NCBI GenBank assembly: GCA_032027085.1
Contig: JAVSMS010000001.1
Location: 3,183,126-3,247,125, forward strand
Length of the DNA stretch: 64,000 nucleotides
Origin: Pseudorhodoplanes sp.
GTDB lineage: Bacteria > Pseudomonadota > Alphaproteobacteria > Rhizobiales > Xanthobacteraceae
Direction: 5' to 3'
A model generated the notes under the pieces. The model made no database searches. It was not told where the DNA came from and saw nothing but the letters and a program-made list of their open reading frames with translations. Each line of letters begins with the position of its first letter. Position 1 is the stretch's first letter. Shown here in pieces: positions 3,452 to 59,633 of this stretch. A program made the translations under genes and the position numbers.

Positions 3452-3766
3452 TCACGGGCAGTAGATATCCTTGAGGAGCTGAAGCAGCCGCGCGACTTTC
3501 GGATCGGTCAATCTGTAGAAGATTGTCTGTGCATCGCGCCGCGTTCCGACGAGGCCGTTATCCCGCATCATGGCGAGATGCTGCGACAGCGCCGACTGAC
3601 TGAGCCCGACCGCATCGGCAAGGGCGCCAACCGGCATTTCCTCCTCGCCGATCAAACGGCAGAGGACCAGGAGTCGTTTCTCGTTGGCGACCAGCTTGAG
3701 CAGGCGCGCGGCATCCCCCACTTTCTTCTCGAAAATAGCGAGGTCGGCAGCCCGTTTCGTAGTCAA
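3452..3766 (-). CDS. bigR: ArsR/SmtB-family persulfide-responsive repressor, BigR/SqrR-like
   Basis: A 104-residue winged-helix protein of the ArsR family. The recognition helix is in LSQSALSQHLAMMRDNGLV (about residues 55-73). It lacks the metal-binding cysteine motif of arsenic or cadmium sensors. It has just two cysteines, Cys36 (LVLCRL) and Cys103 (DIYCP), spaced 67 residues apart as in BigR/SqrR proteins, where the pair is oxidised by polysulfide and releases DNA. It heads the rhodanese-TSUP operon and is divergent from an MBL-fold hydrolase. An inverted repeat lies in the 75-base gap (3781-3794), fitting autoregulation and control of both sides. Confidence 0.85.
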   Translation of the reverse strand: MTTKRAADLAIFEKKVGDAARLLKLVANEKRLLVLCRLIGEEEMPVGALADAVGLSQSALSQHLAMMRDNGLVGTRRDAQTIFYRLTDPKVARLLQLLKDIYCP

Positions 3767-3841: not shown

Positions 3842-4717
3842 ATGACGACACCGCGCAGGCCCGAGATCAGGGCCTTTTTCGATGAACCGACCAACACCGT
3901 GAGCTACCTGGTCTGGGACGCCGCCACCCATGAGGGCGCCGTGATCGACCCGGTGCTGGATTTCGATCATCGCTCCGGCAAGGCGTCGGTCGCTTCCGCC
4001 GATGCGATCCTGGATTTCGCCGTACAAGCCGGGGTCAAGATCGTCTGGGTACTCGAAACTCACGCGCACGCCGATCATCTGTCGGGCGCGCCGTACATCA
4101 AGCTGAAAACCGGCGCCAAGGTCGGCATCGGAGAACATATTCGCGACGTGCAGCGCATCTTCCGACCGGTCTTCAATGCGCTCGATGTGTCGGGCGAGGG
4201 CACTGAATTCGATCATCTCTTCAAGGACGGCGAGCGGTTCAAGATCGGCGGGCTCGACGTCGAGATCATCTATACGCCTGGCCATACGCCTGCCTGCGTG
4301 TCGTACAAGATCGAGGACGCCGTGTTCGTCGGCGACACAATGTTCATGCCGGATTACGGAACCGCCCGCGCCGACTTTCCAGGCGGGGATGCACGTTCGC
4401 TCTACCGTTCGATCCAATGGATCCTCAGTCTGCCGGCCGAGACGCGCCTATTCATGTGCCATGATTACAAGGCGCCGGGCCGGGATTCATATGCGTGGGA
4501 GACCACCGTGGGCGAGGAGCGCGCGCGCAATGTTCACGTTCGCGATGGCGTCAGCGAAGATGAATTCGTAACGATGCGCGAAGCGCGCGACGCCAAGCTG
4601 GCGGCGCCGCTGCTGCTGTTGCCCTCGATCCAGGTCAATATCCGCGCCGGCAAATTTCCCCCCGCCGAATCCAATGGCGTCCACTATCTTAAAATTCCGG
4701 TGAAGCTGGCGTCCTAG
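3842..4717 (+). CDS. blh: MBL-fold hydrolase, persulfide-dioxygenase-like (Blh)
   Basis: Metallo-beta-lactamase-fold protein of 291 residues. The metal-binding motif HAHADH covers residues 74-79 after VLETH, and further ligands are present in YTPGHTPAC, VGDTMF and CHDYKA. The pattern fits the ETHE1/Blh group, which oxidises glutathione persulfide to sulfite with one Fe(II). A strong AGGAG site lies 6 bases before the ATG at 3842. It is divergent from the BigR-like regulator and so likely derepressed by sulfide. Blh proteins in related bacteria often carry an extra DUF442 phosphatase-like domain; this one has none. A paralogue of the same size lies at 54007-54879. Confidence 0.85.
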   Translation: MTTPRRPEIRAFFDEPTNTVSYLVWDAATHEGAVIDPVLDFDHRSGKASVASADAILDFAVQAGVKIVWVLETHAHADHLSGAPYIKLKTGAKVGIGEHIRDVQRIFRPVFNALDVSGEGTEFDHLFKDGERFKIGGLDVEIIYTPGHTPACVSYKIEDAVFVGDTMFMPDYGTARADFPGGDARSLYRSIQWILSLPAETRLFMCHDYKAPGRDSYAWETTVGEERARNVHVRDGVSEDEFVTMREARDAKLAAPLLLLPSIQVNIRAGKFPPAESNGVHYLKIPVKLAS

Positions 4718-52024: not shown

Positions 52025-53193
52025 GCATGAGCGCGGTCACTCATGGCGACGTCTCCTTTGTGCGCCAGGCGCCAGTGGCCCCATTGCCGCCGCCGGTCAG
52101 CGAAACCGGCGTTATCGGCTGGCTGCGCAAGAATCTCTTTTCCGGCCCGCTCAACTTCGTTCTGACGGCACTGTCGCTCGGCCTCATCCTGTGGGTCATT
52201 CCGCCGCTGCTCGACTTCCTGATCTTCAACGCGACCTGGTCCGGGCAAGATCGCGAGGCCTGTGTTGCGACCGCGGAGCGGCCCGAGGTCGGCGCCTGCT
52301 GGGCCTTTGTGCGCGAGCGGATCAGCTATTTCATCTACGGTTTCTATCCGATCTCGCAGCGCTGGCGCGTCGACGTGTTCTTTGCGCTGCTCGCGGTCGG
52401 CATCGTGTGGCTGCTGGCGCCGCGTGCGAAGGGGCGGCTTTGGGGCGCATTGTATTTTTTCGTGGTGATGCCGCTTCTGTCCTACATCCTGCTGTTAGGC
52501 TGGCCGCGATACGGCCTGCCTTATGTCTCCACCGCGCAATGGGGCGGAATGCTGGTCACCGTGGTGGTGTCGGCGATCGGCATTGTCTTTTCCCTGCCGA
52601 TTGGGGTCGTGCTGGCGCTCGGGCGCCGGTCGCGCATGCCACTGGTGAAGCTTTTCTCCGTTATCTTCATCGAGTTTGTGCGCGGGGTGCCGCTCATCAC
52701 CGTGTTGTTCATGGCCAGCGTGATGTTGCCGCTGTTCGTGCCGGACCAATGGTCGCCGGACAAATTGCTGCGCGCGCTTGTCGGGGTGGCATTGTTCGCC
52801 TCCGCTTATATGGCCGAAGTGGTGCGCGCCGGGTTGCAGGCGATCCCGCGCGGACAATATGAGGGCGCCCAGGCAATCGGATTGTCCTACTGGCAGATGA
52901 TGGGGCTAGTCATCCTGCCGCAGGCGCTGCGCACCACCATTCCCAATATCGTCAACAGCTATATCGCGCTGTTCAAGGACACGACGCTGGTGTTCGTGGT
53001 TGGCATTTTCGATTTCCTTCGCACCATCGAGACTGCCCGCGTTGATCCGAAATGGGCGACGCCGGTGACCAGCACGACAGGCTATGCCTTCGCCGCCATC
53101 GTGTATTTCTTTTTCTGCTACCTGATGTCGCGCTACGCTTATGACATGGAACGGCGGCTGGCGACGGATTATCGGCGGAGGCGACGCGCGTGA
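52021..53193 (+). CDS. aapM: amino-acid ABC transporter permease AapM
   Basis: A permease of 390 residues starting with GTG at 52021 (or ATG at 52027). The permease loop is [36 protein letters not shown]. Extra helices before the core match AapM/BztC. The C-terminal [16 protein letters not shown] is basic and cytoplasmic. It overlaps aapP by four bases, so the four subunits are tightly coupled. Confidence 0.93.
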
Positions 53194-53999
53194 CCGACCA
53201 GCCGACAACCACCGGGAAGAAGCCTGTTTTCGGCGGCTTTGTCCGGCGCGAGGCGGGCGGCGCGACGCGGCCTGCCGTCGAAATGACCGGCGTGCACAAA
53301 TGGTTCGGTGATTTCCACGTGCTGCGGGACATCAATCTGACGGTCGCCCGAGGCGAACGCATCGTCATCTGCGGACCGTCAGGTTCCGGCAAGTCCACCA
53401 TGATCCGTTGCATCAACGCGCTTGAAGAACACCAGCGCGGCACGATCCTGGTTGACGGTATGCAATTGACCGCCGATCTGCGGCGGATCGATGAAGTCCG
53501 CCGCGATGTCGGCATGGTGTTCCAGCATTTCAATCTGTTTCCGCACCTCACCGTGATGGAGAATCTGACGCTGGCGCCGATCTGGGTGCGGCGGATGCCG
53601 AAAGCCGAGGCGGAAGAGAGGGCGATGCATTTCCTGCGGCGGGTAAAGATTCCGGAACAGGCGCAGAAATATCCGGGGCAATTGTCGGGCGGTCAGCAGC
53701 AGCGTGTCGCCATCGCGCGAGCCTTATGCATGAATCCGAAGCTCATGCTGTTCGACGAGCCGACCTCGGCGCTTGATCCGGAAATGGTCAAGGAGGTGCT
53801 GGACACGATGGTCCAGCTTGCGGAAGACGGCATGACCATGCTGGTCGTGACGCATGAAATGGGCTTCGCCCGCCAGATCGCCGACCGTATCGTCTTCATG
53901 GACGAAGGACAGATCGTCGAGGTCAACACGCCGGCTGAATTCTTCGCCAATCCGAAGCACGAGCGGACGAGGCTGTTCCTCAGCCAGATTCTGCATTGA
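53190..53999 (+). CDS. aapP: amino-acid ABC transporter ATPase AapP
   Basis: A 269-residue ATPase. Walker [14 protein letters not shown]-loop [13 protein letters not shown], signature [13 protein letters not shown], Walker [14 protein letters not shown]-loop [15 protein letters not shown]. An N-terminal ~30-residue extension precedes the core. Its stop lies 7 bases from the convergent MBL-fold gene's stop. Confidence 0.95.
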
Positions 54000-54006
54000 T
54001 CCGGGA

Positions 54007-54879
54007 TCAGATCGCGTCAATCGGGATTTTCAGATAGGAGCGGCCGTTGCTTTCCGGAGGGGGCAGGCGGCCGCCACGCAGATTGACCTGCAAGGCGTGC
54101 AGGATCAGCGCCGGCATCGGCAAGCTTTTGTCGCGCGCCTCGCGCATCGCGATGTAGCTCTCGCGCGTCGGATGCTTGGTAAGATGGATGTTGTTGCTCC
54201 TCTGTTCGGCGACGGTGGATTCCCACTGCGCCGGGCGGCCGTTCGGCTTGTAGTCATGGCCCGTGAAAAGCCGGGTCTGGTCCGGCAGCGCCAGAATTTT
54301 CTGAATCGAATCGTACAGCACCGCCGCGCTGCCGCCGGGAAAATCGGCACGCGCGGTCCCGAAATCCGGTTGAAACAGTGTGTCATGCACGAAAGCCGCA
54401 TCGCCGATCACATAGGTAATGGAAGCGAGGGTGTGACCCGGCGAATGGATGACACGGACAGGCAATGCGCCGACCGCAAAGGTCTCGCCATCGGCGAACA
54501 AATGGTCCCACTCCTTGCCGTCGGTGGGGAAGTCCGGCTCGTGATAGATGTGCTTCCAAAGTTTTTGCACATCGACCACCTTCTCGCCGATGGCCGTCGG
54601 CGCGCCAAGCTTGTCTTTCAGATAGGCGGCGGCGGAGAAATGATCGGCATGCGGATGCGTGTCCAGAATCCAGTCGATCGTCAGCTTGCGGTCCTTGACA
54701 GCCTTCAGCAGTTCATCCGCGGATCTCCCCGAGACGCGGCCCGCTCTTTCGTCATAGTCGAGCACGGGATCGATGATGACGGCGTGATGGCTGGTCGGAT
54801 CGGCCACGATATAGGCGATGCTGCCGGAAGGCTCATGGTAGAAGCCAGCGACGTCCGGACGAGGCAAGGCGCTAGTCAT
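54007..54879 (-). CDS. MBL-fold hydrolase, persulfide-dioxygenase-like, second copy
   Basis: A 290-residue metallo-beta-lactamase-fold protein with HPHADH at residues 75-80. Other ligands are in HSPGHTLAS, VHDTLF and GHDYKP. It shares size and block order with the BigR-linked copy at 3842 (both have VIDPVLD before the motif). It lies two bases downstream of a mercaptopyruvate sulfurtransferase gene, itself downstream of cysK, which fits a role in oxidising persulfide produced from cysteine. ETHE1-type activity is inferred; glyoxalase II-like activity is the alternative. Confidence 0.85.
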   Translation of the reverse strand: MTSALPRPDVAGFYHEPSGSIAYIVADPTSHHAVIIDPVLDYDERAGRVSGRSADELLKAVKDRKLTIDWILDTHPHADHFSAAAYLKDKLGAPTAIGEKVVDVQKLWKHIYHEPDFPTDGKEWDHLFADGETFAVGALPVRVIHSPGHTLASITYVIGDAAFVHDTLFQPDFGTARADFPGGSAAVLYDSIQKILALPDQTRLFTGHDYKPNGRPAQWESTVAEQRSNNIHLTKHPTRESYIAMREARDKSLPMPALILHALQVNLRGGRLPPPESNGRSYLKIPIDAI

Positions 54880-54881
54880 GC

Positions 54882-55745
54882 TCAGGGCTCAGGTTCGATC
54901 GGCAGGTCGCCGCGGCCCGCCCATTCGGTCCAGGAGCCATCGTAAAGCGCCTTCGGCTCCTTGCCGATGGCTTCCAGCGCCAGCGTCAGGATCGCGGCGC
55001 TGACACCGGAGCCGCACGAGGTGATCACCGGTTTGTCGAGATCGACGCCGCCCTTGCGGAAGGCCTGCTTGATGCGCTCGGCATCCACCAGGCGGCCGTC
55101 TTCCACAATGTCGGCATAGGGAACGTTGAAAGCACCCGGCATGTGGCCGGAAGGCAGTCCCGGCCGCGGTTCGGGCGCAGTGCCGGCAAAGCGCTCGGCG
55201 GAGCGCGCATCAACGACCTGGGCGGATTTGTCCGCCAGCGCCTTCTGAATGTCGGCGACCCTCGCCACCGCGCCGGCATTGAAGCGTGGCGTGAAATGCC
55301 GCGGGGTGCGGCGCGTTTCGCCAAGCTCGATCCTGCGGCCTTCGGCCTTCCACTTCGGAAAGCCGCCATCGAGGAGAAAGACGTCGCGCACGCCGAAAAT
55401 GCGAAACGTCCACCAGACGCGGGCAGCGGAAAACAATCCGAGCCCGTCGTAGACCACGATGGTCTGGCCGTCTCCAATGCCGAGATGGCGCATGGCCGAC
55501 GAGAACGCTTCGGGCGAGGGGATCATGTGCGGCAGATTGCTGGACGTATCCGCAATCTTGTTGATGTCGAAGAACACCGCACCTGGAATATGCGCCGCCA
55601 GATATTCCTGGTGGCCGTCGCGCTTCATCGTGGAGAGATAATAGGAGCCGTCCACCACCACAATGTCAGGTGCGTCGAGGTGGTCTTCCAGCCATTGCGT
55701 GGAGACCAGCCATCTGCTCGGCAACGTCGGATCGGAATTGGGCAT
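54882..55745 (-). CDS. sseA: 3-mercaptopyruvate sulfurtransferase
   Basis: A two-domain rhodanese of 287 residues. The N-terminal inactive domain covers about residues 1-135 (VSTQWLEDHL at its start). The C-terminal domain carries the active loop TSCGSGVSA, with Cys244. The CGSGV(S/T)A loop is that of mercaptopyruvate sulfurtransferases; thiosulfate types have CRKGVTA. It transfers sulfane sulfur from 3-mercaptopyruvate to a thiol and makes persulfide that the neighbouring MBL-fold enzyme could oxidise. Confidence 0.92.
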   Translation of the reverse strand: MPNSDPTLPSRWLVSTQWLEDHLDAPDIVVVDGSYYLSTMKRDGHQEYLAAHIPGAVFFDINKIADTSSNLPHMIPSPEAFSSAMRHLGIGDGQTIVVYDGLGLFSAARVWWTFRIFGVRDVFLLDGGFPKWKAEGRRIELGETRRTPRHFTPRFNAGAVARVADIQKALADKSAQVVDARSAERFAGTAPEPRPGLPSGHMPGAFNVPYADIVEDGRLVDAERIKQAFRKGGVDLDKPVITSCGSGVSAAILTLALEAIGKEPKALYDGSWTEWAGRGDLPIEPEP

Positions 55746-55757
55746 TGCAAACTCTTG

Positions 55758-56798
55758 TTACACTTTCTCGAACGGCGGCTGAATGCTGGTTTTGCGTTCA
55801 AGCCACGCGGGCACCGGCAGATCTTTCGAACGCAGGAAAGCCGGATTGAACAATTTCGACTGGTAGCGCGTGCCGTAGTCAGCCAGCACGGTGACAATCG
55901 TCTTGCCCTTGCCGAGTTCCTTTGCAAGACGAATTGCGCCTGCGATGTTGATGCCCGATGAGCCGCCGAGACACAGGCCCTCATGCTCCAGCAGATCGAA
56001 GATGATCGGCACGGCTTCTTCGTCGGGGATCAGATAGGCGTGATCGACCTTGATGTCCTCGATGATCGGTGTGATGCGGCCGAGGCCGATGCCTTCGGTG
56101 ATCGAGCCGCCTTCGGTCGCTTCCACCTTTCCGTGCGCGAACAGATTGTACATGGCCGCGCCTCTCGGATCGGCGACACCGATGACGATGTCTTTCTTCT
56201 TCTCGCGCAGGAATGTGGAGACGCCGGCAATGGTGCCGCCGGTGCCGATGGCGCAGATGAAGCCATCGATCTTGCCGCCGGTCTGCTCCCAGATCTCCGG
56301 TCCGGTCGATACGTAGTGGGCTTTGCGGTTGTCGAGATTGTTCCACTGGTCGGCGAAGATCACACCGTTCTTTTCAGTCTTCTTCAGTTGCTCGGCGAGG
56401 CGGCGGCCAACATGCTGATAGTTGTTGGGATTGCTGTAGGCGACCGCCGGCACTTCCACGAGCTCGGCGCCGCAGAGCCGCAGCATGTCCTTCTTTTCCT
56501 GACTCTGGGTGTCGGGGATGACGATGAGCGTGCGGTAGCCCAGCGCATTGGCGACCAGCGCAAGCCCGATGCCGGTATTGCCGGCCGTGCTTTCCACCAC
56601 CAGGCCGCCCGGCTTGAGCTCGCCGCGTTTTTCCGCTTCCAGAATCATCTGCTTGCCGGCGCGATCCTTCACCGACTGGCCGGGATTCATGAATTCGGCC
56701 TTGCCCAGAATGGTGCAGCCGGTCGCGGCCGAGGCATGTTCGAGCTTGATGAGTGGCGTGTTGCCGATGGCGTCGACGAGGCCGTTGCGGATATGCAT
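55758..56798 (-). CDS. cysK: cysteine synthase A (O-acetylserine sulfhydrylase)
   Basis: A PLP fold type II enzyme of 346 residues. The PLP lysine is in PGQSVKDRAG, and the phosphate loop is in GTGGTIAG. VESTAGNTGIGLALVANALG is the substrate loop (TAGNTG form). The long C-terminus (AFLRSKDLPVPAWLERK) exceeds the ~310-residue standard CysK and is typical of an alphaproteobacterial subgroup. It is first in the cysK-sseA-MBL cluster with gaps of 12 and 2 bases. Confidence 0.92.
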   Translation of the reverse strand: MHIRNGLVDAIGNTPLIKLEHASAATGCTILGKAEFMNPGQSVKDRAGKQMILEAEKRGELKPGGLVVESTAGNTGIGLALVANALGYRTLIVIPDTQSQEKKDMLRLCGAELVEVPAVAYSNPNNYQHVGRRLAEQLKKTEKNGVIFADQWNNLDNRKAHYVSTGPEIWEQTGGKIDGFICAIGTGGTIAGVSTFLREKKKDIVIGVADPRGAAMYNLFAHGKVEATEGGSITEGIGLGRITPIIEDIKVDHAYLIPDEEAVPIIFDLLEHEGLCLGGSSGINIAGAIRLAKELGKGKTIVTVLADYGTRYQSKLFNPAFLRSKDLPVPAWLERKTSIQPPFEKV

Positions 56799-56880
56799 GA
56801 AGATCGATCCGGCTTTCTGTGGAGAGCGCGACCCTATCGAGGCCGTATCCTCACGACAAGCCGTCCCGGACGGGCCTCAG

Positions 56881-58107
56881 CTATGAGCTTTTGGCGAACA
56901 CCATCTGCCGGACGTCGATATTTCCGGACAGAAATCCGGCTTCGCAATAGGACAGATAATATTCCCACAGCCGCCGGAATCGCTCGTCAAAGCCGAAGGG
57001 CGCCAGTCCCGGCCAGGCGGCCCGGAAGCGTTCGCGCCAGGTCGCGAGGGTGAGGGCGTAGTCATTGCCGAAGACTTTCTCGCCGGCGAGCGGCAGACCG
57101 AAGCCCTGTCCCAAAGCTTTCAGCGTTGACGGCGTCGGCAGCATACCGCCGGGAAACACGTAGCGGCGGATGAAATCGATCTCGCGCCGGTAATGGGCGA
57201 ACAGCTTTTCCTGAATGGTGATGGTCTGGATGCCGGCAAGCCCGCCGGGTACGAGGCGATCGCGCAATTGCCGGAAATAATCCGGCCAGAATTGCTCGCC
57301 CACCGCTTCCAGCATCTCGATCGAGGCGATGCGGTCATAGGAGCCGCGCTCGTCCCGATAATCCTGCAGCCGAATCTCAATCTTCTCCGCAAGACCCGCA
57401 TTGAAGACGCGCCGCTTCGCGTAGTCGAATTGCTCGCGGCTGATGGTCAGACCGACAACCCTGGCGCCGACGTTTTTCGCAGCATACTCGGCAAAGCCGC
57501 CCCAGCCGCAGCCGATCTCCAAGATTGTGTGATCGGATTTCAGATCGATCTGCTGTGCCAGGCTCTGATATTTGCGCAATTGCGCAGCGGATAGATCGTT
57601 GCCGTCCTGATCGAACAGGGCGGACGAATAGGTCATCGTCGGATCGAGCCAGGCGGCATAGAAGTCGTTGCCGAGGTCGTAATGGGCGTGAATGTTCTTG
57701 CGCGCCTGCCGCTTGGTGTTGCGGTTGAGCCAGTGGCGGAAGGTTTGCGCCCAGCGTACGAGGGGATGCGCAAGCACGGACTGCAGCATGTCCTGATTGA
57801 CACAGAACAGATAGAGGAAACGGGTCAGATCGGACGTTTCCCACTCGCCGCGCAAATAGGCTTCGGCCATTCCGATGTCGCCGCTCTGGAGCAACCGCCA
57901 GGCAAATCGATAGTCCTTGATGACCAGTTGCGCGGTGGGACCGTCCGTCTCGCCCTTGAAGACCAGGAGCCGGCCGTCCGGCAGCGAGACCTCAAGCGTT
58001 CCGCATCGGATGCGTTCGGCCAGCTTGAAGGCGGTGCGGACCGCCGCCGGCAAGCCGGTCAGAGCCTCCGTACGCGTTTGCGGGGTAATAGTGACGATCT
58101 GCTGCAT
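56881..58107 (-). CDS. cfa: cyclopropane-fatty-acyl-phospholipid synthase-like methyltransferase
   Basis: Adds a methylene group from S-adenosylmethionine to unsaturated fatty-acyl chains. It has 408 residues. The SAM motif is LEIGCGWGGFAEYAAKN. Other signatures are HYDLGNDFYAAWLDPTMTYSSALF and SIEMLEAVGEQFWPDYF. The N-terminal ~130 residues form the lipid-binding domain of the Cfa family. The 82-base gap after cysK suggests independent expression. Confidence 0.92.
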   Translation of the reverse strand: MQQIVTITPQTRTEALTGLPAAVRTAFKLAERIRCGTLEVSLPDGRLLVFKGETDGPTAQLVIKDYRFAWRLLQSGDIGMAEAYLRGEWETSDLTRFLYLFCVNQDMLQSVLAHPLVRWAQTFRHWLNRNTKRQARKNIHAHYDLGNDFYAAWLDPTMTYSSALFDQDGNDLSAAQLRKYQSLAQQIDLKSDHTILEIGCGWGGFAEYAAKNVGARVVGLTISREQFDYAKRRVFNAGLAEKIEIRLQDYRDERGSYDRIASIEMLEAVGEQFWPDYFRQLRDRLVPGGLAGIQTITIQEKLFAHYRREIDFIRRYVFPGGMLPTPSTLKALGQGFGLPLAGEKVFGNDYALTLATWRERFRAAWPGLAPFGFDERFRRLWEYYLSYCEAGFLSGNIDVRQMVFAKSS

Positions 58108-58249
58108 GAGGAGCCGCCCGAAGAACCAAAAAACCCATTATCGTGCGGCCACATCGACCTGTCTACGTGGCCTGTGGAGGCGCCGATGGGCAAATGGGCG
58201 GAAAGCCGTGGCGGATGTCCGGCAAAAAAAGAGGCAAATTCGCTGCGAT

Positions 58250-58270
58250 TTTGAAACCACTTTGAAACCA
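58250..58270. repeat. 11-bp-spaced direct repeat TTTGAAACCA
   Basis: TTTGAAACCA occurs at 58250-58259 and 58261-58270, i.e. in register on one helical turn, in the divergent region between cfa and the GGDEF gene. It is a candidate binding site. No regulator is assigned. Confidence 0.45.
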
Positions 58271-58406
58271 TGGCGAAGCGATTCAGCGTCACTCTTTGAT
58301 CAGTTTCACGACTTGTTTGCCCCCCGGGGCTATTGGTTGGCGTGTTTCCAGACGGGCCGGATTGTCTTGGCATGGCCCGATTTTTTGCTTTCCGGGTCAC
58401 CGTTGA

Positions 58407-59633
58407 ATGAGTCTCGACGTCCATACGCTTTTTCTCGTCACGATTTACGTCGAGGCAATGCTTGGGCTGCTGCTCCTCTTCGCCTGGGTGCAGAATACGG
58501 CGATCACGGCGGTCGCTTGGTGGGCGTGGGCGCATCTGCTGCGGGCGGCGTCCATCGCTCTGTTCGGCAGATTTGGGTCGACCTCGGACCTCATCACCAT
58601 CGATTTGGCGAACGCGCTTCTGTTCGTATCGTTCGCCATGACCTGGACCGGGGCGCGGGTCTTTGGCGGCCGCGCTCCATCGCTGATCGGTCTTGTTGTC
58701 GGTGCCGCGATCTGGCTGGCCGCCAGCAGGCTGGCCATCGTCGCCGAATCGATGGAAATGCGCATTCTCGTCAGTTCCAGCATTATCGCCGGCTATTCGT
58801 GGATGTCGGCCTACGAGTTCTGGCGCGGCCGCGACGAGCCGCTAGTGTCGCGCTGGCCCGCCATTTTCATGCTTTTCGCGCATGGCGCCTTGTTCATGCT
58901 GCGCACGCCGCTGAGCCTGATCCTCCCCTGGATGCCGGACACCCAGGTTTTCGACAGCGTGTGGATGATCGTCTTGAGCTTCGAAGCACTGCTGTTCACC
59001 ATTGCGATCGCCTTCATCTTCCTTGCCATGGCGAAAGAACGCACCGAGTTTCTGCACAAGACCGCCTCTCTGGTCGATCCGCTCACCGGCATTGCCAATC
59101 GACGCGCCTTTCTGGAGGGAAGCGAGGAACTGGCGCGTCGTATCGAAGCGGATCAGCGTCCGGCCAGCGTGTTGCTGATTGACCTGGATCACTTCAAGTC
59201 GATCAACGACAATTATGGTCACGCCTTCGGTGACCGGGTGCTGCAGATTTTCGCCAAGACCGCGACCGCGCGGCTCGGGCCGTGGGATATCGTCGGACGG
59301 CTGGGCGGCGAGGAGTTCGGGGTGCTTCTCTATGACGCCGACCATGATCGCGCGATGACCATCGCCGAGGAGATCCGCCATTCATTCGCGGAGCATGCCC
59401 GCCAGGTTGACGGATGCGATGTGCGGGCCACCGCATCGATCGGTGTTGCGATCAGTTTCAAGGCACCCCTTGACGTGCATACGCTGCTCGCGCAGGCGGA
59501 CGAGGCGCTTTATTGCGCCAAGGAGCGTGGCCGCAATCGCGTCGAGACATCCTCGCTCGACCTGATCCTCAGGTTGGACAGTTCGACGCCTTCGCTGCGC
59601 ATTCCCGAACTGGTGGCGAAGAACGCGGCTTGA
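58407..59633 (+). CDS. membrane-bound diguanylate cyclase (GGDEF)
   Basis: Makes cyclic di-GMP from GTP. It has 408 residues. Residues ~1-215 hold six or seven hydrophobic helices. The GGDEF domain starts at DPLTGIANRRAFLEG and has GRLGGEEFGVLLYD, with the GGEEF active loop at residues 300-304, so it is predicted active. An RxxD inhibitory site upstream of the loop is not clear. There is no EAL domain. It stands alone. Confidence 0.92.
   Translation: MSLDVHTLFLVTIYVEAMLGLLLLFAWVQNTAITAVAWWAWAHLLRAASIALFGRFGSTSDLITIDLANALLFVSFAMTWTGARVFGGRAPSLIGLVVGAAIWLAASRLAIVAESMEMRILVSSSIIAGYSWMSAYEFWRGRDEPLVSRWPAIFMLFAHGALFMLRTPLSLILPWMPDTQVFDSVWMIVLSFEALLFTIAIAFIFLAMAKERTEFLHKTASLVDPLTGIANRRAFLEGSEELARRIEADQRPASVLLIDLDHFKSINDNYGHAFGDRVLQIFAKTATARLGPWDIVGRLGGEEFGVLLYDADHDRAMTIAEEIRHSFAEHARQVDGCDVRATASIGVAISFKAPLDVHTLLAQADEALYCAKERGRNRVETSSLDLILRLDSSTPSLRIPELVAKNAA

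What the first reader, a model, noticed from the sequence alone, without database searches (positions are those of the whole stretch)
54007..56798. Second persulfide module: cysK-sseA-MBL, parallel to the BigR module 50 kb away
Two MBL-fold proteins of 290 and 291 residues, each next to a rhodanese-type enzyme, occur in one window. The first sits with an inducible repressor; the second is tied to cysteine synthesis and mercaptopyruvate sulfurtransferase. This suggests a division of labour: one for external sulfide stress, one for persulfide from internal cysteine turnover. The pairing of cysK with a sulfur-removing pair in one operon is unusual because synthesis and breakdown would be co-expressed.
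Basis: partly seen in the sequence, partly recalled or inferred. Interest (0 to 1): 0.5.

Follow-up and report, generated by a model that had tools for sequence, protein, structure and literature searches.

The report
Cysteine operon with a persulfide oxidase
A bacterium carries genes for a cysteine-making enzyme, a sulfur-carrying enzyme and a persulfide-oxidising enzyme in one tight row; the first two are ordinary neighbours in its order, while the third place is filled in its family by either of two distantly related enzymes that are predicted to do the same job.

Summary
The three genes are real and correctly placed: cysK (56798-55758), sseA (55745-54882) and an MBL-fold gene (54879-54007), minus strand, gaps 12 and 2 bp. 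By sequence the MBL protein is a persulfide dioxygenase (PDO), not glyoxalase II: the dioxygenase half of Blh without its sulfurtransferase half.

cysK near sseA is not unusual: 56 of 61 sampled family loci and 34 of 40 from other families, often with alaX between.

What is special is the third slot. A PDO follows sseA in 30 of 61 family loci and 0 of 40 elsewhere: 24 times a type I PDO-rhodanese fusion, 6 times the Blh type. They exclude each other in 31 genomes checked; a weakly resolved host tree needs 12 changes of state.

Most likely SseA makes glutathione persulfide and the PDO oxidises it to sulfite, in an operon that also fixes sulfide into cysteine. The proposed division of labour fits few genomes: 6 of 31 also have an MBL1-type enzyme.

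The parts
55758..56798 (-). cysK: O-acetylserine sulfhydrylase (cysteine synthase) of the PRK10717 subgroup, 346 aa
   Evidence: NCBIfam PRK10717 532.9 bits; three solved 'cysteine synthase' chains 5jis, 5i7w, 5jjc at 471-478 bits, the next chain at 223.9 (that they are Brucella enzymes is recalled); Gln in place of Met in the PDTQS segment (from residue 95) and an extra segment near residue 118 against the genome's canonical CysK
54882..55745 (-). sseA: 3-mercaptopyruvate sulfurtransferase, two rhodanese domains, active-site loop CGSGV from residue 244, 287 aa; the only SseA found in the genome
   Evidence: PRK11493 312.3 bits; 1urh '3-mercaptopyruvate sulfurtransferase' 270.5 bits; single match in own genome at E 0.001; motif position
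54007..54879 (-). free-standing persulfide dioxygenase of the Blh type (called MBL2 here), 290 aa; predicted iron ligands H75, H149, D166 and GSH-binding R177, R246, R249
   Evidence: Blh NF040641 501.4 bits; alignment with 4ysk, full-length Blh and GloB; positions; tree
53190..53999 (+). convergent amino-acid ABC transporter ATPase gene that ends 7 bp from MBL2 and marks the far edge of the slot
   Evidence: function read from the translation; found convergent downstream of sseA in 39 of 61 family loci and 23 of 40 others
56881..58107 (-). cyclopropane-fatty-acid synthase-like gene upstream, 82 bp before cysK; probably not part of the module
   Evidence: found upstream of the cluster in only 7 of 61 and 4 of 40 loci
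3842..4717 (+). MBL1: the other PDO-like protein, beside the BigR-like repressor (comparison only)

Best explanation
The row is a cysteine/persulfide operon. SseA takes sulfane sulfur, most likely from 3-mercaptopyruvate, and passes it to glutathione, giving glutathione persulfide (GSSH). The PDO (MBL2), a mononuclear iron enzyme, oxidises GSSH with O2 to sulfite and GSH. CysK fixes sulfide into cysteine, so sulfide set free from persulfide, or made from the sulfite by sulfite reductase, is recovered. cysK-(alaX)-sseA is the old core in the order; a PDO was added behind sseA in the family, repeatedly and in two exchangeable forms: a type I PDO-rhodanese fusion or the Blh-type dioxygenase. In the Blh form SseA would stand in for the sulfurtransferase half that Blh carries on the same chain. 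Shown here: gene order, family assignment, active-site residues, exchange of the two PDO types. Inferred: enzyme activities, co-transcription, direction of flux.
For: Tight packing, 12 and 2 bp. MBL2 matches the dioxygenase half of Blh, keeps the 2-His-1-Asp residues and the three Arg reported to bind GSH in type II PDOs, and lies on a 100/100 branch with a confirmed full-length Blh, away from GloB. Two different PDO types take the same place between sseA and the convergent ABC gene: 24 fusion and 6 Blh-type of 61 loci, none of 40 in other families. In 7 genomes with MBL2 in the slot no full-length fusion was found, and in the 24 with the fusion in the slot no MBL2-type gene. Of 30 family genomes without a slot PDO 3 have the fusion elsewhere, so in these 61 genomes the fusion stands beside sseA in 24 of the 27 that have it. 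Separately purified sulfurtransferase and dioxygenase domains of Xylella Blh couple in vitro (PMC5823870, passages), so coupling in trans is feasible.
Against: No activity, transcript or metabolite was measured. 31 of 61 family loci have no PDO found behind sseA (one of them, L153, ends too soon to tell), so the PDO is optional. In some loci other genes lie between sseA and the PDO (gaps up to 2.3 kb; an SDR in several), which weakens strict co-transcription there. No sigma-70-like site was found in 53900-57100 (0 found, 0.8 expected in shuffles), which neither supports nor refutes one transcript.
Confidence: 0.72

Rival explanations
1. Assimilation module: the pair turns thiosulfate or persulfide sulfur into sulfite, which sulfite reductase and CysK turn into cysteine. 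Synthesis and 'breakdown' would then run in one direction. SseA would act as a rhodanese on thiosulfate as well as on 3-mercaptopyruvate. It overlaps with the best explanation and differs in the direction of flux.
For: cysK stands in all 30 loci with a slot PDO. A PDO-rhodanese fusion was assigned to sulfur assimilation in a 2017 J Biol Chem paper, known here only by its title in a reference list.
Against: The PRK11493 assignment and the CGSGV loop point to 3-mercaptopyruvate rather than thiosulfate (the loop rule is recalled). Sulfite reductase and cysE were not looked for.
Confidence: 0.4
2. Division of labour: MBL1 under the BigR-like repressor meets outside sulfide, MBL2 meets persulfide from internal cysteine turnover.
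For: Both enzymes are present here; MBL1 sits beside a BigR-like repressor with Cys36 and Cys103, MBL2 beside an MPST. The same pair occurs in G303, whose MBL1 also has BigR-like, rhodanese and TauE-like genes beside it.
Against: Only 6 of 31 genomes with a slot PDO have an MBL1-type enzyme. The Blh-type sequence lies on the supposed 'internal' side, although Blh itself is the BigR-controlled enzyme in Xylella and Agrobacterium.
Confidence: 0.3
3. MBL2 is a glyoxalase II or other thioesterase and its place is accidental.
For: Weak match to the GloB profile (80.7 bits, cut-off 200.8).
Against: Blh match of 501 bits; the genome has a separate GloB at 316 bits; the tree sets GloB apart (with very long branches to it); the R-x-D-F segment of PDOs is present in MBL2 and missing in GloB.
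Confidence: 0.03

Closest known systems
Blh of the bigR operon (Xylella, Agrobacterium)
   Same: The dioxygenase half is of the same sequence group: 501-bit match, and segments such as DTHPHADHFSAA and AAFVHDTLFQPD shared with a confirmed Blh, L102; a sulfurtransferase is paired with it.
   Different: No DUF442 sulfurtransferase half on the chain, no BigR or TauE beside it; the partner is an SseA-type rhodanese in trans.
Persulfide dioxygenase-rhodanese fusion (BpPRF, 5ve3) and MxPDO (4ysb)
   Same: Same reaction class; relatives of these fill the same slot in 24 of 61 family loci.
   Different: Type I PDO with C-terminal rhodanese; only 31-35% identical to MBL2.
Type II PDOs of Pseudomonas (PpPDO 4ysk, PaPDO)
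   Same: Similar length, the long middle segment that the type I fusion lacks, iron triad and GSH-binding arginines.
   Different: MBL2 is 53% identical to 4ysk; MBL1 rather than MBL2 shares the ETHxHADH, TPGHTPAC and FVGDT segments with it.
Mitochondrial sulfurtransferase-ETHE1 pathway
   Same: A sulfurtransferase makes GSSH and a dioxygenase makes sulfite (PMC5823870 introduction, passage, which names TST; the part of MPST is recalled).
   Different: Here the genes stand in one row with cysteine synthase; type I ETHE1 is replaced by the Blh type in this genome.
CysK of Brucella abortus
   Same: Met-to-Gln change and an extra Tyr-bearing segment as described for B. abortus CysK and A. brasilense CysK-B (PMC12811640, passages). 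The closest solved chains are 5jis, 5i7w and 5jjc, recalled as Brucella enzymes.
   Different: Whether this enzyme escapes CysE was not tested.

Membership tests
Persulfide dioxygenase (ETHE1/Blh group) | Iron triad 2-His-1-Asp in an MBL fold | tested here: met
   H75, H149, D166 correspond by motif to the PaPDO ligands His71, His146, Asp163; residues only, no metal measured
Persulfide dioxygenase (ETHE1/Blh group) | GSH-binding arginines of type II PDOs (Arg174, Arg244, Arg247 in PpPDO) | tested here: met
   R177 in GTARADF and R246/R249 in REARDK, in line with 4ysk
Persulfide dioxygenase (ETHE1/Blh group) | GSSH-dependent O2 uptake and sulfite formation | not testable with these tools
   needs protein
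Blh (bifunctional ST/SDO) | N-terminal DUF442 sulfurtransferase domain on the same chain | tested here: not met
   MBL2 matches profile 140-423 only and its ORF starts 2 bp after the sseA stop; a full Blh (L102) scores 746.5 bits over 2-423
Blh (bifunctional ST/SDO) | bigR and tauE in the same operon | tested here: not met
   neither stands beside MBL2
Blh (bifunctional ST/SDO) | dioxygenase half of the Blh sequence group | tested here: met
   501.4 bits; 100/100 branch that holds L102
Glyoxalase II (GloB) | GloB profile above its cut-off | tested here: not met
   80.7 bits, cut-off 200.8; the genome's GloB scores 316.2
3-mercaptopyruvate sulfurtransferase (SseA) | PRK11493 profile and CG[ST]GV loop | tested here: met
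   312.3 bits, cut-off 250; CGSGV from residue 244; loop rule recalled; substrate not tested
Cysteine synthase A, PRK10717 type | profile above cut-off; SVKDR, GTGGT and GGSSG segments | tested here: met
   532.9 bits, cut-off 387; motif positions; motif meaning recalled
BigR (repressor beside MBL1, the comparison module) | BigR profile above its cut-off | tested here: not met
   87.2 bits, cut-off 155, though two cysteines stand at 36 and 103

The most novel reading that the evidence does not exclude
The cysK-(alaX)-sseA core has a plug-in position that has been filled independently, and at times emptied and refilled, by two distantly related persulfide dioxygenases that did not occur together in any of 31 genomes checked. 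This would make it a natural replacement experiment showing that GSSH oxidation is a selected third step of MPST-linked cysteine metabolism in these bacteria, with SseA acting in trans as the lost sulfurtransferase half of Blh.
Probability: 0.6. Interest if true: 0.5.

Novelty: new variant of a known kind. Interest (0 to 1): 0.4.

Why it matters
All parts are known enzymes. The cysteine synthase - MPST - PDO row, and the exchange of two PDO types in one slot, did not appear in the listings of four full-text searches (open-access papers only, most of the listed papers not opened). It ties bacterial MPST to persulfide oxidation by gene order and offers matched relatives (for example G000 with MBL2 and G297, same genus, with the fusion) in which the coupling can be tested.

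Tried and rejected
Glyoxalase II/lactonase: rejected. 'cysK-sseA is unusual': rejected. Rfam elements in 53000-58500: none at gathering score. Promoter/terminator scan of 53900-57100: 0 promoter-like sites (0.8 expected); 5 terminator-like sites on both strands (2.5 expected), the 2 on the minus strand both inside sseA. A structure prediction was not run, because solved relatives exist (53% identity to 4ysk). For the second-PDO question MBL1 as query missed the fusion in 3 genomes that have it (G313, G351, G332), so the fusion was used as query too.

Limits of the sampling: 61 of the 75 other family rows with SseA at 54% identity or more, 19 of 47 rows at 41-49%, and 40 of 132 other-family genomes with a match were fetched. 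cysK counts as present if within 4 kb upstream, a PDO if within 3 kb downstream, both on the strand of sseA. One of the 61 (L153) has under 150 bp behind sseA and cannot show a PDO; it is counted as 'none', and its genome was left out. The host tree is a quick tree with SH-aLRT support only, 22 of its 72 inner branches are open and 6 rows are under half filled; starred branches alone force at least 3 changes for MBL2 and 8 for the fusion. In the PDO tree 8 duplicate rows were dropped first, the MBL2 rows of L059-L127 were thinned by 38 to a random 28 plus some chosen ones, three slot fusions too short or split (L134, L139, L143) were not in it, and two of the 14 slot-MBL2 rows (L052, L176) are identical and come from contigs of one length, so probably from one genome. 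In one search three genomes without a slot PDO (G359, G321, G304) show an MBL stretch at 38-40% to the fusion elsewhere, and G341 shows one at 40%; these were not assigned.

Full report
Observation. NCBIfam names the first two above their cut-offs (PRK10717 and PRK11493) and gives Blh as the best match of the third over its dioxygenase half (501.4 bits over 140-423 of 423). The window lies in a one-contig assembly of 4.97 Mb. The nearest named relative found is a Pseudorhodoplanes metagenome bin (82% in the MBL). The genome shows one SseA, three CysK-like proteins, of which one is CBS-like and one is canonical CysK, and four MBL matches to the query, the query included.

What the MBL protein is. 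It keeps H75, H149 and D166 and the arginines R177, R246 and R249, which correspond by motif to the iron and GSH ligands reported for PaPDO and PpPDO (PMC12856154, passages). In the tree of 116 rows it lies on a 100/100 branch together with L102, a full-length Blh (746.5 bits, both halves), and apart from GloB (the two GloB-like rows have very long branches, so only their exclusion is used). The MBL beside the BigR-like repressor lies outside that branch, with weak support for its exact place, and shares several segments with the Pseudomonas type II enzyme 4ysk.

Neighbourhood elsewhere. Regions around SseA were fetched for 61 family loci with SseA at 54% identity or more, 19 with a more distant SseA (43-49%) and 40 from other families of the order. 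They were scanned with the window's proteins plus four found on the way: AlaX, the PDO-rhodanese fusion, a HutX-like protein and an SDR (the first three named, the SDR from its sequence). cysK lies upstream on the same strand within 4 kb in 56 of 61, 0 of 19 and 34 of 40; alaX in 21, 0 and 28; a PDO within 3 kb downstream in 30, 0 and 0. So cysK-(alaX)-sseA is widespread in the order and the PDO is a family addition. Among the 30 the PDO is the fusion in 24 and the Blh type in 6. Empty sites exist, for example L158, where about 70 bp separate the sseA match from that of the convergent ABC gene.

Exchange of the two PDOs. The Blh-type slot PDOs (14 rows, named MAG loci included) form one clade and the fusions (21 rows) another, but their hosts do not: on the SseA+CysK tree of 75 rows the three states need at least 12 changes, against 29.8 on average when shuffled; MBL2 alone needs 4 and the fusion 10, of which well-supported branches force 3 and 8. 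In the genus, G297 carries the fusion; G000, G303, G302, G298, G301 and G299 the Blh type, in G301 and G299 behind an SDR gene; in G300 the contig ends inside sseA. Of 31 genomes with a slot PDO, the 7 with the Blh type have no full-length fusion and the 24 with the fusion have no MBL2-type gene. Of 30 family genomes without a slot PDO, 3 have the fusion elsewhere. Near relatives of MBL2 outside the cluster are not beside sseA or cysK (0 of 29 and 0 of 71 loci), while 10 of 29 and 2 of 71 have a BigR-like gene near (the first set has only 1.5 kb on either side).

Mechanism. Known: in Xylella Blh the sulfurtransferase domain makes GSSH from thiosulfate and GSH, the dioxygenase domain oxidises GSSH to sulfite, and the two work together also when purified apart (PMC5823870, passages). 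MPST converts 3-mercaptopyruvate to pyruvate and persulfide (PMC9774590, passages). Inference: SseA and MBL2 work as such a pair in trans. CysK of this subgroup carries the Gln change that in B. abortus is reported to abolish the interaction with the CysE tail (PMC12811640, passages), so it may run free of CysE control. Whether the row burns surplus cysteine sulfur or feeds sulfite back to cysteine cannot be told from sequence. Two papers on these points are known here only through other papers; the one on a PDO-rhodanese fusion in sulfur assimilation is not held.

Grouping with GloB: not so. cysK with sseA unusual: not so. Division of labour: of 31 genomes with a slot PDO, 6 have an MBL1-type enzyme (75% identity or more), so it cannot be the general reason for the slot; in this genome it remains open. 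In two of those six (G000, G303) the MBL1 gene was checked and stands beside BigR-like, rhodanese and TauE-like genes; the other four were not checked.

Novelty. Four searches for the combination listed 3, 12, 0 and 1 papers; none shows it in title or abstract start. Of the listed papers only PMC5823870 and PMC9774590 were opened, in passages; subscription papers were not searched. The parts are known, the arrangement is a variant, and the exchange of two PDO types in one place is the point of interest.

Noticed in passing
L039:745-1461, L050, L051, and 28 of 40 other-family loci: An alanyl-tRNA editing protein (AlaXM-like, 196 bits, cut-off 300) stands between cysK and sseA in much of the sample; it is missing here, and a search of the own genome gave one weak match, inside a 915-codon frame that looks like AlaS. 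Why a tRNA editor sits in a cysteine row is unexplained.
   Followed up: partly
L049:4552-5064, L052, L055, L170, L176, L208: A HutX-like heme carrier (182.9 bits, cut-off 110) stands between cysK and sseA in one sub-lineage.
   Followed up: no
L189-L207: A more distant SseA group (43-49%) in the family has no cysK beside it but a rhodanese-domain-like stretch just upstream in 19 of 19 loci.
   Followed up: no
L134 and L139 (G313, G392): The fusion gene matches in two pieces in different frames in two draft genomes: frameshift or assembly error.
   Followed up: no
window 3452-3766: The repressor beside MBL1 scores 87.2 for BigR (cut-off 155) yet has cysteines at 36 and 103, comparable to the Cys42/Cys108 pair of BigR.
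   Followed up: partly
G000:C1:3161808-3162746 and 3179755-3180666: A CBS-like protein (372 bits, cut-off 510) and a canonical CysK (458 bits, cut-off 351) lie about 21 and 3 kb before the window.
   Followed up: partly
L059, L061, L063, L064, L069, L079, L082, L085, L086, L090, L092, L098, L099, L101: MBL2-type and MBL1-type genes follow each other on one strand in these 14 loci, mostly halomonads.
   Followed up: no
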